Part shown: positions 24,541 through 62,051 of the stretch, in pieces | Layout of the letters: each line of letters begins with the position of its first letter | How positions within the stretch are numbered: the first letter of the stretch is position 1 | From: Candidatus Rifleibacteriota bacterium | GTDB taxonomy: Bacteria > Muiribacteriota > Ozemobacteria > Ozemobacterales > Ozemobacteraceae | Reading direction: 5' to 3' | Assembly: GCA_012517355.1 (NCBI GenBank) | Contig: JAAYVD010000111.1 | Span: 62,001 to 126,000, forward strand | Length of the DNA: 64,000 nucleotides | Position numbers and translations under genes: made by a program | Notes under the pieces: model-generated | What the model saw: only the letters and a program-made list of their open reading frames with translations | Told to the model about the DNA's origin: nothing | Database searches by the model: none

Positions 24541-24661
24541 GAGACTTCAGCATTTCGACAGAAACCTCGAGGACGGCAGGGGAAAGGAAGACAGGGGGGA
24601 AATGGCGAAGGGATTCGCCAGCTCATAAGGCCAATCAGCATCGATGGGGAGATGAAGAACG
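24541..24661 (+). repeat. Family B dispersed repeat, copy B1
   Basis: About 120 bp shared with 36560-36682 at roughly 85% identity by eye. Conserved blocks include GCATTTCGACAGAAACCTCG, GGGGAAATGGCGAAGGGA and AATCAGCATCGATGGG. Internal stems are TTTC-GACA-GAAA and GGCGA-AGGGAT-TCGCC. It lies between the receiver-ATPase gene and copA. The rest of this 342-base gap contains no gene. Confidence 0.75.
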
Positions 24662-28228: not shown

Positions 28229-28477
28229 GGAGAACCTACTCGACCCCGGTCCCATCGGCCGGGGAATGCTCCCCTGCCCTGTCAGCGACACTGTGGGCGA
28301 CCGTCTTGCCCCGGGGGGGCGTTTGTGGGAAAATGACGGCAGGAAGACCACCCATGGAGGTTCCATGGAGACCCGGTCGCCCGGCAACAGAGGATTCAAA
28401 GTCTCCACCCAGCAGGAATCCCCCTGAGGGATCCCTCGTCCAGGGTCCGCCCGTTCCGTCCGTTCATCGATCTTCGC

Positions 28478-28567
28478 GGACGGCCCCTTGGCGATGCGTG
28501 AATCGGGCCTTTCGCGCCGCCATCGGTGGCGGCAGTGGGGCACTTCCGACATCGTGTCGGTCGGGGC
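28478..28567 (+). repeat. Family A palindromic repeat, copy A4 (upstream of kinase gene)
   Basis: Near-consensus copy. Core hairpin GCCGCC-ATCGGT-GGCGGC (28516-28533) and third stem CCGACA-TCG-TGTCGG (28546-28560). It ends 39 bases before the hybrid kinase start, so it probably lies in its leader or promoter. The rest of the 28229-28606 gap shows no gene. Confidence 0.85.
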
Positions 28568-36559: not shown

Positions 36560-36682
36560 GGAGACTTCCGCATTTCGACAGAAACCTCGAGGGAGGCAGG
36601 GGAAGGGGAGAAAGGGGGGGAAATGGCGAAGGGAGTCGCCAGCACGATCTGCGCAATCAGCATCGATGGGTGGATGAAGAAC
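36560..36682 (+). repeat. Family B dispersed repeat, copy B2
   Basis: Second strong copy of the 24541-24661 element, in the gap between two glycosyltransferase genes. It retains GCATTTCGACAGAAACCTCG and the stem GGCGA-AGGGAG-TCGCC. Just before it, 36468-36520 contains an ACCACCACCGGGACGCAGA-type string reminiscent of the CACAGAG repeat near 48.9 kb. Confidence 0.75.
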
Positions 36683-36734
36683 GTGAAAACCCCCACCGGG
36701 AGAATGAGGCGCGGGGAATGAGAGACGGAGAAGC

Positions 36735-37943
36735 ATGAAACGGTCGTCAGCCGGGCTCCGGCCGCCGGTCCTGTTCGTGGCGCCGGTGGCCTGGGATGGC
36801 CTGCGACAGCGGCACCAGGCGCTGGCCGAAGAACTGGCCAGGGCCGGTTACCGGGTGGCCTATCTCAACCCCCTCATCGGAGGCGGGTTCGGCCTCACCA
36901 CCACCTTCGCCATCCTTGATGAAAGCCCGGGACAGGGAAGCCAACCCCTCGACCATGCTCCCGGAATCCGTGTGCTCGACCTGCGCGTCCCCTTCCGGGC
37001 GGCCGCTTGGCCTGGATTGCAGCGGATCGCCGCCCGCCTGGCGGCCGGGCTGCTCGGCCGGGCTGGCCACCTCACCCCCCGCCACCTGGTCTGGATCGCC
37101 GATCCAGCCATGGCCGGCCTGGTCTGCCGCCCCCACCGGGGAGCTGACCGACACGTTATCGACAGGGCTTCCCCCTTGCCGCCCCGGATGGCCGCGCGCA
37201 CCGCGGGGTTCGCGCCGGGCACGGGGGCCCTCGTCTACGACCGGTGCGACCGACATGGGACCTTCCCCGGCCAAAGGCCAGGGCCGTGGCAGGCCTACGA
37301 ACGGCTGTTGCTGGCGCGGGCCGGGCTGGTCCTGGCCACGACCGAAGACCTGCTGCCGGCGGCCGCGGCCACCCCCGCCCGCCGGCTGCTGGTGCCCAAC
37401 GCCGCCGCTCCCGACCTGCTCCGCGAACCCATCCCCGCCCGCCCCCCGCCCCCGCCCCTGCGGGTGGTCTCGGCCGGCGCCCACTACGAATGGGTCGATA
37501 TCGGCTGGCTCGACCGCCTCGCCGGGCTGCCGGGAATCGAGCTGCACCTGGCCGGGCCCGGCCGGGGGGAGGCCTTCGCCAGACTGGTTCGCCGCCCCGA
37601 CGTGACCGGCCACGGGGTGCTCGACCGCGCCGGCCTCCGGAGCCTGCTGGACCGCTGCCACGTAGGAGTGGTCCCCTTCCGCGACCTGCCCCTGACCCGG
37701 GCGGTCGATCCCGTCAAGGCCTACGAATACGCCGCCCGGGGCCTGCAGGTGTGGGGAACCGACCTGCCCTCGTTGCGCCGCCACCCTTTCGTCGACCGGT
37801 GCCTGGACCTGGACGCCCTCGGGCCCGACCTCGTCGCCAACACGATCCGGGGCTGGGAAGGCCGCCGCCCCCCTCCGCCGCCTCCCACCTGGACCGACCG
37901 CATGGCGGGCCTGCTGCCGCACCTCGAGGCCTTGTCGGCATGA
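36735..37943 (+). CDS. Glycosyltransferase (GT4-like) carrying an in-frame family A repeat
   Basis: 402 aa, GT-B type. The N-terminal domain begins with VLFVAPVAWDGLRQRHQALA, and the C-terminal domain has VVSAGAHYEWVDIGWLDRLA and the donor-site region DPVKAYEYAARGLQVWGTDL. This resembles the TuaH/WcaI-like transferases of surface polysaccharide synthesis. Between PHRGA and LVYDRCDRHG lies an extra segment of about 30 residues (with SPLPPRMAARTAGFAPGTGA) that is exactly the translation of family A copy A5. Removing it restores the usual strand that leads to the conserved YDRCD. GGAG precedes the ATG. Its stop overlaps the next start (ATGA). Confidence 0.85.
   Translation: MKRSSAGLRPPVLFVAPVAWDGLRQRHQALAEELARAGYRVAYLNPLIGGGFGLTTTFAILDESPGQGSQPLDHAPGIRVLDLRVPFRAAAWPGLQRIAARLAAGLLGRAGHLTPRHLVWIADPAMAGLVCRPHRGADRHVIDRASPLPPRMAARTAGFAPGTGALVYDRCDRHGTFPGQRPGPWQAYERLLLARAGLVLATTEDLLPAAAATPARRLLVPNAAAPDLLREPIPARPPPPPLRVVSAGAHYEWVDIGWLDRLAGLPGIELHLAGPGRGEAFARLVRRPDVTGHGVLDRAGLRSLLDRCHVGVVPFRDLPLTRAVDPVKAYEYAARGLQVWGTDLPSLRRHPFVDRCLDLDALGPDLVANTIRGWEGRRPPPPPPTWTDRMAGLLPHLEALSA
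37146..37235 (-). repeat. Family A palindromic repeat, copy A5 (inside glycosyltransferase gene)
   Basis: Reverse-oriented copy of 90 bases, i.e. 30 codons, so the frame is kept. Reverse complement reads GCGCGCGGCCATCCGGGGCG at the core, then GATAACGTGTCGGTC in the third stem. Confidence 0.8.
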
Positions 37944-39289
37944 GCATCCTCGCGGTCGGCTTCTTCGGCGAGGGCAACCTCGGAGATGAGGCGATCCTCG
38001 AAGGCCTCGCCGCCAGCCTGCCCGCCGGGTTCACCCTGACGGTGACCGCCGGGTCCCGACCCCTGGGGGCCCCGGCCGCCCGCATGCCGCGGCGGGGCCT
38101 GACCGCCTGGCCGGCCTTCCTGCGGGCGTTGCGGGGAACCCGCCAGGTCGTCTTCACCGGGGGCATGCTGCAGGACTGGTCGTTCGACGGGGTGGTTTTC
38201 TACGCACTGCGGATGCTGGCTTCCTCCCTCGCCGGCCGGCGGCCCGGCCTGTGGGGGGTCGGCCTCGGGCCTTTGCGGCATCCCGCCGCCCGCGGTATCG
38301 CGGCCCGCCTGCTTCGCCACGCCGGCCCGGTCTGGGTGCGAAACGAGGGGTCGGCCCGCCTGTTCCGGGAACTGACCGGCCGACCGGCCCGCCTGGGGTG
38401 CGACTGGTCGTGGGCCATCCCCGACCCGTCGCCCGACCAGGCCTCACCTGCCGGGGAACCGGGTGGCCGACCACCGCCGCCCGCGGGCGCCGATGACCGC
38501 CCAGTCCCTCCCCTCACCCCGCCGCCCGCCTCATCCCCGGTGGCGGCTGGGCACGACGGCCCAGGGGTCTGCCACCGGCGCGGGAATGTCCTTCCAGATT
38601 TGGCAGGAGCGGTCTCCCAAGCACGCCCCGGGCGGCCCGATGGCGAGGGTTCCCTCCTGCCGCCACCGATGGCGGCGCGCAATCCCAGGTTCACCCATGG
38701 CCAGGGGGCCACCCGGCCCGCCGGCGGAAGGATCGGCCTGAATCTCCGCCCCTGGATGGATGGACGCTTCCTCGAGCAGGCGCGCCAGGCCTTCGGAGGC
38801 CGGCCACCCAGGGACCTGTTGGGGGTCGCCGCCCGGACGGAAGATGCCCGCCTGCTGCGCGCCACGTTTTCCGATCTCGAGGTGCGGGAACCAGCGTCCT
38901 TCACCGAACTGATGAGGCTGGGGCGCGGGCTGTCGGAAGGCTGGGCCATGCGGTTCCACGTCGTGCTGGCCTGGCTGCGCGCGGGCCTCCCGGTCGTGCC
39001 GCTGGCCTACGACGACAAGGTCGACGGCCTGTGTCGCGAGATCCGGCCCGCCGGCCCCGGCCAGCCACCCGCGCCCGCCTACGCCGCGGAGCCCACCACC
39101 ATCGCAGGACCCACCACCAACGCCAAGACCGCCACCCCAGGAAGGCCCACCGCCGTTGCCAGGACCGCCACCCCCGCGGCCCAAGCTGCCGCCGGCCACG
39201 TCCGTGCCTCCGAAGCCTGGGTCTCCGAAGCCGGCCGGCGCCTTCTCACCATGCGGGCCGCCCTGTGGGAAACCTGCCAGGCGGGATGA
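37940..39289 (+). CDS. CsaB-like polysaccharide pyruvyltransferase family protein
   Basis: 449 aa, GT-B-like fold. The N-terminus MSILAVGFFGEGNLGDEAIL has the family GN-x-GDEA motif. It is followed by VVFTGGMLQDWSF, where CsaB has GGGSLLQD, and the second domain starts at GGRIGLNLRPW. The motif SEGWAMRFHVVLAWLRAGLP, with the family His, is present. CsaB adds ketal pyruvate to cell-wall glycans from PEP. Between the domains (about residues 165-255) is a long Pro/Gly-rich insertion that includes family A copy A6. A second low-complexity Thr/Ala/Pro stretch lies near the C-terminus. The start overlaps the preceding glycosyltransferase stop by four bases. Confidence 0.85.
   Translation: MSILAVGFFGEGNLGDEAILEGLAASLPAGFTLTVTAGSRPLGAPAARMPRRGLTAWPAFLRALRGTRQVVFTGGMLQDWSFDGVVFYALRMLASSLAGRRPGLWGVGLGPLRHPAARGIAARLLRHAGPVWVRNEGSARLFRELTGRPARLGCDWSWAIPDPSPDQASPAGEPGGRPPPPAGADDRPVPPLTPPPASSPVAAGHDGPGVCHRRGNVLPDLAGAVSQARPGRPDGEGSLLPPPMAARNPRFTHGQGATRPAGGRIGLNLRPWMDGRFLEQARQAFGGRPPRDLLGVAARTEDARLLRATFSDLEVREPASFTELMRLGRGLSEGWAMRFHVVLAWLRAGLPVVPLAYDDKVDGLCREIRPAGPGQPPAPAYAAEPTTIAGPTTNAKTATPGRPTAVARTATPAAQAAAGHVRASEAWVSEAGRRLLTMRAALWETCQAG
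38634..38715 (-). repeat. Family A palindromic repeat, copy A6 (inside CsaB-like gene)
   Basis: Reverse-oriented. The core GCCGCC-ACCGAT-GGCGGC reads on the plus strand near 38660-38677; the third stem is degenerate. Read in the same frame as A5, giving SLLPPPMAARNPRF against SPLPPRMAARTAGF. Confidence 0.7.
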
Positions 39290-60064: not shown

Positions 60065-60961
60065 TCACCATTCCGCGGGCAGGAGGGCGGCGGCGGGCAG
60101 CACCCGGCGTTCCCTGACGTCCTCGCCCAGGACCTGGACCACCTCCATGCCCAGGGCCCGGCCCGGTTCGAGGGGGCCCACCCCGCCGGACAGGGCCACC
60201 CATTGCCGGCCGTCGTGTCGCAGGAACCGGACCTCGGCCACCCCGTTCAGCAGGACCTGCGACCGCGGGGCCTCCACCGTGGCCACGCCGTGGGCGAGCT
60301 GGCTGACGGTGCGGACCAGAACGTGGCGGGCCGGGTCGAACCGCCATTCCACGCGGTTGAACCCGCGGGGCATGTCGTCGCGGGCGATGATCTCCCGGCG
60401 CGACGTTGAATAGGCCAGCATCCCCGATCCGCCCAGGATGGTGAAGGAGGGATCGGCCGGGTCGTGCCGGATCTCCCCGACCTCCTTGCGGAAGACCTCG
60501 AGACAGAATTCCGCCTCCCGCGCCGTGCGGCCGGCCGTGCGCGCCGCCCGATCGAGGCGCGCCATCCCGTACAGCAGGCCGTTGGCGAGGGCGAACAGCA
60601 CCGCGGTGAGAGCCAGGGCCACCCAGAGTTCGACCAGGGTGAACCCCGACCGCCCGCCCACGGCCGGCCACCAGCCGGAAGGGAAAGGCGGAGCGGCCCG
60701 ACCACGGCAGACCCCTGGTGCGTTTCGGAGAAACGCGGCTTTCAGGGGACGGCCCCCTTGCGACGCGCGAAACCGGCGTTTCGCGCCGCCATCCGTGGCG
60801 GCAAGGGGGCACTTCCGACGTCGTGTCGGTCGGGCAGGCCCTCCCCTCGCCCAGGCGTGAACCGGGGGTTTCGCGCCGCCATCGATGACGGCCAGCGAAG
60901 GTGTCCCGTCCCGACGCGGCCGGAAGCCGTTCGGGGTGGTGTGAGGATGGGGAGGGTTCAT
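60065..60961 (-). CDS. gspJ: Type II secretion minor pseudopilin GspJ with repeat-filled presequence
   Basis: 298 aa. The prepilin motif is GRSGFTLVELWVALALTAV, with cleavage after Gly106 and Glu at +5. The mature part (ARDDMPRGFNRVEWRFD and later strands) fits GspJ. The gene starts at the ATG at 60961, overlapping the gspI stop (ATGA), which supports that start by coupling. The resulting presequence is 106 residues, whereas normal ones are under about 30. Most of it is translated from two family A repeats (DGGAKRRFRASQGGRP and DGGAKPPVHAWARGGP). A downstream in-frame GTG six codons before the site lacks a Shine-Dalgarno. The presequence would be removed by the prepilin peptidase. Confidence 0.88.
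   Translation of the reverse strand: MNPPHPHTTPNGFRPRRDGTPSLAVIDGGAKPPVHAWARGGPARPTRRRKCPLAATDGGAKRRFRASQGGRPLKAAFLRNAPGVCRGRAAPPFPSGWWPAVGGRSGFTLVELWVALALTAVLFALANGLLYGMARLDRAARTAGRTAREAEFCLEVFRKEVGEIRHDPADPSFTILGGSGMLAYSTSRREIIARDDMPRGFNRVEWRFDPARHVLVRTVSQLAHGVATVEAPRSQVLLNGVAEVRFLRHDGRQWVALSGGVGPLEPGRALGMEVVQVLGEDVRERRVLPAAALLPAEW
60745..60835 (+). repeat. Family A palindromic repeat, copy A9 (in gspJ presequence)
   Basis: Near-consensus. It shows CGCGAAACCGGCGTTTCGCG, core GCCGCC-ATCCGT-GGCGGC and third stem CCGACG-TCG-TGTCGG. It is antisense to gspJ. A separate small stem CGTTTC-GGA-GAAACG adjoins at 60721-60735. Confidence 0.9.
60847..60915 (+). repeat. Family A palindromic repeat, copy A10 (shorter, in gspJ presequence)
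   Basis: Tandem neighbour of A9 with GCGTGAACCGGGGGTTTCGC and core GCCGCC-ATCGAT-GACGGC; the third stem is lost. It is read in the same frame as A9 (DGGAK in both peptides). Confidence 0.8.
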
Positions 60962-61335: not shown

Positions 61336-62051
61336 TCGGGTTCGACCTCCCCGTCGTAGGGCCGGAACCGGATCCGGTGCCGTTCCCCGGTCTCGCGGTC
61401 CCGCACCTCCAGGGGTCCGGGGTCGCAGAATCCTTCCGGGGCGGCCCACCAGCCGGCGTCCAGGCCGGTCACCTCGCACCAGCCGGGCAGGGGGTGGGGT
61501 TCGAGGAACAGGCGGTCGACCGTCGGACCGGAGGGTCCCCCATCGCGCACCTCGAGGCGGCCGTCGACGAGGCGGACGACCCGGGACCGGCCGGAGAAGA
61601 CGGCCGAGGACCAGCTTTCCCGGCAGAGGAGTTCGAGGCGACGGGTTTCCCGATCCAGGCGGGTGCGGCCGATCCAGCCGGCGAGTTCCGGCAGGAGAAG
61701 CCCGGCTCCCATGGCCAGCAGGGCCATCACCACGACCAGTTCGACCAGGGTGAAACCGGAGCGGACGCAGGAATAAGGGGAAGGAAGGGGCGCAGGAGAA
61801 TGGGAGAAAAGGGGGAAGGGGCGAGCGGTGACCTGGCTTCGAAGGGGAAGCGAGCCTTCGGCGGAAGAAGGAAGATGGGAATGCGTGAGGGAAAAAGAAG
61901 AAAGAGGAAATGAAGGGCAAGGAAGGGGCGCAGGAGAATGGGAGAAAAGGGGGAAGGGGCGAGCGGTGACCTGGCTTCGAAGGGGAAGTTTCCCGCCCCA
62001 AGAGACTGGGAGGGAAGTCTTTCGGGGTTGGCCCCGGGGCGGGTGAGGCAT
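61332..62051 (-). CDS. gspH: Type II secretion minor pseudopilin GspH with duplicated long presequence
   Basis: 239 aa. The prepilin motif CVRSGFTLVELVVVMALLAM is followed by a GspH-like domain (LLCRESWSSAVFSGRSRVVR). Cleavage is expected after Gly99. No ATG, GTG or TTG occurs in frame between the site and the ATG at 62051, so the presequence must be about 99 residues or start at a non-standard codon. It contains the peptide LRSQVTARPFPLFSHSPAPL twice, encoded by the 70-bp direct repeat. The ATG at 62051 lacks a Shine-Dalgarno but lies 17 bases after the gspG stop. Confidence 0.82.
   Translation of the reverse strand: MPHPPRGQPRKTSLPVSWGGKLPLRSQVTARPFPLFSHSPAPLPCPSFPLSSFSLTHSHLPSSAEGSLPLRSQVTARPFPLFSHSPAPLPSPYSCVRSGFTLVELVVVMALLAMGAGLLLPELAGWIGRTRLDRETRRLELLCRESWSSAVFSGRSRVVRLVDGRLEVRDGGPSGPTVDRLFLEPHPLPGWCEVTGLDAGWWAAPEGFCDPGPLEVRDRETGERHRIRFRPYDGEVEPE
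61781..61988. repeat. 70-bp exact direct repeat in gspH presequence
   Basis: Copies at 61781-61850 and 61919-61988 are identical, at a period of 138 bases (46 codons), so the frame is kept. Purine-rich on the plus strand. Confidence 0.92.

What the first reader, a model, noticed from the sequence alone, without database searches (positions are those of the whole stretch)
37146..37235. Clean in-frame family A insertion in a glycosyltransferase
Copy A5 is 90 bases (30 codons). It separates PHRGA from LVYDRCDRHG, i.e. it lies just before a strand expected to be contiguous in related transferases. The peptide SPLPPRMAARTAGFAPGTGA is pure repeat translation. This is a natural test of how an active enzyme tolerates a mobile palindrome.
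Basis: partly seen in the sequence, partly recalled or inferred. Interest (0 to 1): 0.68.

Follow-up and report, generated by a model that had tools for sequence, protein, structure and literature searches.

The report
Dispersed repeat inside a glycosyltransferase loop
A short DNA element that is scattered through one bacterial genome has landed in frame inside a sugar-transfer enzyme gene, adding about 29 amino acids to what is predicted to be a floppy surface loop; it is a real and clean example of a kind of event already known from other bacteria.

Summary
Window 37146-37229 is one 84-nt (28-codon) unit of a dispersed palindromic repeat. At least 150 copies match in this 7.1-Mb Ozemobacteraceae (Riflebacteria) genome, and I estimate 300-400 well-preserved ones. 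It lies in frame in a GT-B glycosyltransferase gene (36735-37943). From WxxDP to YDRCD, 15 homologues from other genera of the family all have 14 residues; this protein has 43, a net gain of 29 (one unit plus a codon). The listed end, 37235, is one or two codons too far. AlphaFold gives an otherwise folded GT-B model in which the longest unreliable stretch (133-162) is the repeat-coded loop. Two further genes carry the repeat where relatives lack it: the neighbouring pyruvyl transferase and a distant epimerase. Most copies are intergenic; 12 of 164 lie in clearly continuous coding sequence. Two same-genus relatives have long, unrelated inserts at the same position, so this loop is permissive and not a strict test. 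It behaves like Rickettsia palindromic elements and intragenic REPs, for which an active decorated enzyme is already described. It lacks the tags and transposase association of REPs; no mobilising enzyme was found.

The parts
36735..37943 (+). GT-B (GT4-like) glycosyltransferase gene, 402 aa, host of the insertion
   Evidence: ORF; fold matches to MshA, BshA, GumK, sucrose-phosphate synthase in PDB; homologues
37146..37229 (+). Family A unit (copy A5), 84 nt, codes residues 138-165 in phase 0
   Evidence: boundaries; R1 match 37141-37235, 79.4 bits; empty in out-of-genus homologues
37230..37235 (+).
   Evidence: 3' flank nnCC not conserved beyond C C
37940..39289 (+). Polysaccharide pyruvyl transferase-like gene directly downstream, with its own insert
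   Evidence: PF04230; relatives match 1-166 and 263-391 but not between
38630..38710 (+). Second in-frame family A unit (81 nt), residues about 231-257 of the pyruvyl transferase
   Evidence: R1 68.8 bits; translation; gap in relatives
60745..60836 (-). Well-preserved intergenic family A copy (model match; unit inside), reference for the folded form
   Evidence: 105 bits; three-way-junction fold z -2.95
28476..28567 (-). Intergenic family A copy
   Evidence: 94.7 bits
47804..47897 (+). Intergenic family A copy
   Evidence: 91.6 bits
1963..2054 (-). Intergenic family A copy
   Evidence: 84.6 bits
46641..46729 (+). Family A copy (78-nt unit) inside a called gene, but not passing the strict test
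   Evidence: 83.7 bits
15736..15827 (-). Intergenic, decayed family A copy
   Evidence: 71.9 bits

Best explanation
A5 is an old, partly decayed copy of a non-autonomous, structure-forming interspersed repeat that multiplied in this Ozemobacteraceae lineage. It inserted between two codons in a surface loop that joins a helix to a beta strand in the N-terminal Rossmann half of a GT-B glycosyltransferase. The unit is 84 nt (a multiple of three) and open in the frame used, so the gene stays in frame and gains about 29 residues. They most likely form an unstructured loop on the side of the domain away from the active-site cleft. The copy persists because it does little harm, not because it is useful. 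Shown: the repeat, its dispersal, the in-frame position, its absence in out-of-genus homologues, the low-confidence loop in the model. Inferred: translation, enzyme activity, position away from the cleft (from general knowledge of the GT-B fold), neutrality, and movement by some transposition-like process.
For: Dispersal: 150 of 150 scored candidates in G000; 18 copies of 60 bits or more in 400 kb of G000 and 8 in the 64-kb window; none at E <= 0.001 in 17 of 18 relatives, 3 in G002; no dispersed repeat of the tested kind in 338 kb of G001. Empty site: linker of 14 residues in 15 of 15 out-of-genus homologues measured, 43 here. Structure: pLDDT below 50 in residues 133-162, pTM 0.80 overall; GT-B matches. 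Same event elsewhere: NAD-epimerase L179, relatives match to 172-176 and again from 216-219 around the unit at 183-209; pyruvyl transferase next door. Gene kept: pN 0.32-0.36 against pS 0.50-0.69 to four homologues. Age: 78.6% identity to consensus; only 3 of 137 other copies are further off.
Against: Same-genus relatives have long inserts at the same spot that are not repeats, so the ancestral loop of the genus may already have been extended and the net gain of 29 could be a coincidence of several events. No target-site duplication, terminal inverted repeat or mobilising enzyme was found. A5 itself no longer folds better than shuffled sequence (z 0.59). Staying open after 18 substitutions is expected about 80% of the time anyway, so it is not evidence of translation.
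Confidence: 0.87

Rival explanations
1. The loop was already long in the genus ancestor, and the repeat later landed in, or replaced part of, that expanded loop. The repeat is then a secondary guest of a hypervariable loop, not the cause of its growth. (This overlaps with the best explanation: it changes the history, not what A5 is.)
For: G001 and G002 have 77 and 119 residues where others have 14; the neighbouring pyruvyl transferase also has about 97 extra residues, only 27 of them repeat.
Against: In the glycosyltransferase the gain is 29 residues, almost exactly one 28-codon unit, leaving an ordinary linker once it is set aside.
Confidence: 0.25
2. The inserted peptide has been co-opted, for instance as an interaction or membrane-contact loop, and is kept by selection.
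For: 8 residue changes for 18 base changes, against 11.4 expected in simulation, P 0.037; the same loop is enlarged in all three genomes of the genus that were compared.
Against: The P value is marginal and not corrected for codon bias; the model gives no confident fold for the segment; inserts at this site in the relatives share no sequence with it.
Confidence: 0.06
3. The gene is a pseudogene and the insertion is tolerated because the enzyme is no longer needed.
For: The protein reaches no Pfam family at E <= 1, although two of the four relatives scanned in that call stay below the curated cut-offs too.
Against: Full-length open frame, GC pattern by codon position kept on both sides, conserved residues such as YDRCD and DPVKAYEY intact, folded GT-B model.
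Confidence: 0.05
4. The repeat family originated from this gene and spread outwards.
For: None found.
Against: Out-of-genus homologues lack the segment and A5 is among the copies furthest from consensus.
Confidence: 0.01

Closest known systems
Rickettsia palindromic elements (RPE), including RPE-1 and the CGTC-tagged RPE-4 and RPE-6
   Same: Lineage-restricted palindromic repeats, some inserted in frame in conserved protein genes and adding a few dozen residues; described as neutral or slightly harmful, with an active decorated enzyme (Gmk) (PMC2229807 and PMC10969869, passages read).
   Different: Here a different phylum, G+C-rich, unit 81 or 84 nt rather than 105-146, no 12-bp terminal inverted repeat at the unit ends, consensus open in all six frames, and a minority of copies in genes (12 of 164 strict) against nearly half for RPE as described in PMC10969869.
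Intragenic REP elements (GTAG and CGTC super-families)
   Same: High-copy palindromic repeats, mostly intergenic, with some inside ORFs coding 20-30 residues, thought tolerable in loops or linkers (PMC3733652, passages read).
   Different: No GTAG or CGTC tag in the unit consensus, unit about twice as long with a predicted three-way junction, and no copy near the single Y1 transposase gene found.
Bacterial MITEs such as ERIC, Correia/NEMIS, YPAL
   Same: Small, non-autonomous repeats with stable hairpin structure whose open frames can fuse in frame with genes (PMC2229807, passages read).
   Different: No terminal inverted repeat or clear target-site duplication seen here.

Membership tests
Rickettsia palindromic elements (works like) | Repeat copies in frame inside unrelated protein genes | tested here: met
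   Glycosyltransferase, pyruvyl transferase, epimerase; 12 of 164 copies in continuous coding sequence
Rickettsia palindromic elements | Terminal inverted repeat of about 12 bp | tested here: not met
   Unit ends GACCGACACG and GCAAAGGGGCC are not inverted repeats of each other (by eye)
Rickettsia palindromic elements | Sequence kinship to a named RPE family | not tested
   No RPE sequence was fetched; host phylum differs
GTAG/CGTC REP elements | Terminal GTAG or CGTC tetranucleotide next to a short hairpin | tested here: not met
   By eye, neither tetranucleotide occurs on either strand of the 81- and 84-nt consensus printed
REP/RAYT system | Y1 transposase gene flanked by the repeat | tested here: not met
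   One Y1_Tnp gene, C109:4387-4713; no R1 match in L112 or in L251 = C109:1-9548
MITE | Small dispersed non-autonomous repeat with stable secondary structure | tested here: met
   (consensus fold -49 kcal/mol)
MITE | Terminal inverted repeats and target-site duplication | tested here: inconclusive
   No inverted termini; flanks CC|unit|nnCC are semi-conserved but the two sides do not match copy by copy (by eye)
Known Rfam RNA families | Match at the gathering score | tested here: not met
   No match around A5; only a sub-threshold hya hit, E 0.077, at a good copy

The most novel reading that the evidence does not exclude
The family is coding-compatible by its sequence: units of 81 or 84 nt, open in all six frames, that enter between codons, so that it can lodge in surface loops of Rossmann-type enzymes on either strand and, as copies decay, supply the long Pro/Ala-rich loop expansions seen in proteins of this genus. 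That would make small palindromic repeats a recurrent source of new protein loops.
Probability: 0.1. Interest if true: 0.6.

Novelty: new member of a known kind. Interest (0 to 1): 0.36.

Why it matters
It extends in-frame palindromic insertions, best known from Rickettsia and some other bacteria, to a G+C-rich member of Riflebacteria, with a clean empty-site comparison and three separate host genes. Because relatives carry unrelated inserts at the same spot, the site is better used as an example of a permissive loop than as a strict test of enzyme tolerance. The practical use is annotation: such repeats explain odd, poorly conserved segments in predicted proteins of this genome.

Tried and rejected
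Rejected: the idea that the G001 and G002 inserts at the same site are their own dispersed repeats. The G001 insert has no second match longer than about 40 nt and the G002 insert none at all in G000, G001 or G002, and R1 finds nothing in the G002 region.

Rejected: a RAYT-type mobiliser next to the repeat.

Rejected as proof of selection: openness of the frame after 18 changes (about 80% by simulation). The six-frame openness of the consensus is unusual but not extreme (2.3-2.5% of single-base shuffles). The codon-phase preference (11 of 12 in phase 0) shrinks once target composition is allowed for (phase 0 expected 0.42-0.56 for CC..CC sites; P 0.003 at 0.5, 0.02 at 0.6).

Weak: covariation. 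Only one pair of the outer stem clearly covaries (TA 61, CG 20 of 99); the RNAalifold covariation term on 16 copies was unfavourable (+0.83). So the predicted three-way junction rests on sequence conservation and energy, not on much covariation.

Led nowhere: two literature searches with the host group's names listed nothing on such repeats in Riflebacteria or Ozemobacteraceae; this is a statement about those listings only. The 2002 RPE paper is not held. A sequence search of solved structures gave no real relative.

Rows left out: searches used score cut-offs (42 rows, dropping the 7 of 40 sample matches weaker than E 0.0005 and the 10 of 19 window matches weaker than E 0.001: 167 copies of 60 bits or more, of which 3 were too near an edge). 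L028 and L029 (weak matches from other families) were not put in the homologue alignment, and L027 was not caught by the linker pattern (by eye it also lacks the insert). The copies added were mostly the best-scoring ones, so the in-gene fraction is biased towards well-preserved copies. My gene caller is home-made; a looser count put 37 of 167 inside called genes.

Full report
Observation. The window lies in contig C7 of a 7.1-Mb, 184-contig genome. Named records that coincide with members of its family are Candidatus Ozemobacteraceae and Riflebacteria bacteria, so the host is placed in that group by its relatives. The ORF at 36735-37943 codes 402 aa. The 90-nt query of the finding has 42 matches at E <= 1e-9 in the same genome, itself included. 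From 16 copies I aligned the element and built a covariance model, R1; in G000 150 of 150 scored candidates matched at E <= 0.001, which is a cap, not a total.

Size of the family. In 400 kb of G000 taken without regard to the repeat (contigs C34 and C10), 18 copies score 60 bits or more and 40 reach E 0.01; the window has 8 copies of 60 bits or more. That extrapolates to about 300-400 well-preserved copies. Among 18 relatives searched with R1, only G002 (same genus) has matches, 3 of them; the other 17, including G001 of the same genus, have none at E <= 0.001. A self-comparison finds 31 repeat segments in 464 kb of G000 (the 25 printed are family A by eye) and 0 in 338 kb of G001. The expansion is therefore specific to the G000 lineage.

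Anatomy. In 50 copies the conserved unit runs from CC|GACCGACACG to GGGGCC|nnCC, with sharp loss of conservation outside. Unit length is 81 nt in 99 and 84 nt in 51 of 167 copies, and 152 of 167 are multiples of three. Several places hold head-to-tail units at 81- or 84-nt spacing (coordinates). The consensus folds alone into a 5' hairpin plus a three-way junction (-49 kcal/mol); a good copy folds better than its shuffles (z -2.95), while A5 does not (z 0.59). Covariation support is thin: one outer-stem pair, TA 61 and CG 20 of 99 copies. The consensus has no stop in any of six frames (2.3-2.5% of single-base shuffles do as well).

Where copies lie. With a simple codon-usage gene caller, 31 of 42 copies in the window and the 400-kb sample are intergenic, 8 inside called genes and 3 overlap gene ends, although genes cover about 86% of the sequence. 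With a stricter test that asks for coding signal in one frame on both sides, 12 of 164 testable copies are inside genes, 7 in sense and 5 in antisense, 11 of them with codons starting exactly at the unit edge. Part of that phase preference comes from base composition. Copies outside genes show no preference for gene starts or ends (62 to 62).

The glycosyltransferase. Of 36 genomes searched (35 relatives and G000 itself), 21 have a match, G000 included. In the corrected alignment of 18 homologues, all 16 from outside the genus lack the segment; in the 15 that fit the linker pattern, WxxDP to YDRCD is 14 residues long without exception, against 43 here. The net gain of 29 is one 28-codon unit plus one codon. 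The two same-genus homologues, G002 and G001, have 119 and 77 residues there, Pro/Ala-rich, not related to the repeat and not dispersed in their genomes. This is a permissive loop.

Structure. AlphaFold2 with a shallow seven-sequence alignment gives mean pLDDT 76 and pTM 0.80. Three stretches fall below 50: 1-6, 59-73 and 133-162; the last is the repeat-coded segment (unit = residues 138-165) between helix 124-130 and strand 166-170 (a short low-confidence helix, 150-156, is drawn inside it). Foldseek against the PDB gives GT-B glycosyltransferases such as sucrose-phosphate synthase, MshA, BshA and GumK (TM-scores about 0.5-0.6). By general knowledge of the fold, the start of a strand lies on the face away from the nucleotide-sugar cleft; the model itself was not measured for this.

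Other host genes. The next gene, a polysaccharide pyruvyl transferase (PF04230), matches relatives at residues 1-166 and 263-391 but not between (the two same-genus relatives reach 185-199 and resume at 238-253), and that extra stretch holds a second in-frame unit at 38630-38710. A distant NAD-dependent epimerase (L179, PF01370) has an antisense unit at residues 183-209; relatives match up to 172-176 and again from 216-219. Other strict in-gene copies sit in ankyrin, GAF/histidine-kinase and PQQ-repeat proteins, where I did not check relatives.

Mechanism. Best reading: an interspersed, structure-forming, non-autonomous repeat that mostly settles between genes and now and then survives inside one when unit length and frame leave the gene readable and the site is a loop. 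A5 is old: 78.6% identity to consensus, with only 3 of 137 other copies lower. The gene as a whole has been under constraint (pN 0.32-0.36, pS 0.50-0.69). Nothing shows that the added peptide is useful; the deficit of residue changes is marginal (P 0.037). How the repeat moves is unknown: no inverted ends, no clear target duplication, and the only Y1 transposase gene found has no copy beside it.

Comparison with print. From passages read: Rickettsia palindromic elements insert in frame in protein genes and an RPE-bearing guanylate kinase is active (PMC2229807; PMC10969869); REPs of the GTAG and CGTC kinds are found inside ORFs of many bacteria, often coding 20-30 residues, and their authors suggest loops and linkers as tolerant sites (PMC3733652). 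The present family works like these but lacks the tags and the RAYT association of REPs and the inverted termini of RPEs. I file it as a new member of the general kind, in-frame palindromic repeats, and not as an RPE or a REP.

Noticed in passing
window 36561-36685 (and 24541-24661): A second, unrelated dispersed repeat of about 125 nt, A/G-rich at one end, directly upstream of the glycosyltransferase gene; 39 other places at 86-95% identity in the genome plus two weaker ones (capped; the 24541 copy is not even among them). No Rfam match.
   Followed up: partly
window 37940-39286, residues about 167-262: The neighbouring pyruvyl transferase has about 97 residues that out-of-genus relatives lack, only 27 of them from a family A unit; the rest is Pro-rich and unexplained.
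   Followed up: partly
L012 and L013 (G002 and G001), glycosyltransferase loop: Same-genus homologues carry 105 and 63 extra Pro/Ala-rich residues, with little likeness to each other, at exactly the position of A5.
   Followed up: yes
window 61775-61850 and 61913-61988: Two direct repeats of 76 nt, 99% identical, 138 nt apart, A/G-rich (family D5).
   Followed up: no
G000 contigs C30, C61, C77, C48, C158 and others: Head-to-tail arrays of two or three family A units with 81- or 84-nt period, sharing the CCGACC junction.
   Followed up: no
family A copies outside the strict in-gene set: Differences from consensus are uneven over the three positions of the phase-0 frame (312, 267, 422) even in these copies; may reflect a few variable columns, not tested further.
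   Followed up: no
L112 (G000 C109:4387-4713): The only Y1-type transposase gene found in the genome (about 263 aa), without family A copies in C109:1-9548.
   Followed up: partly
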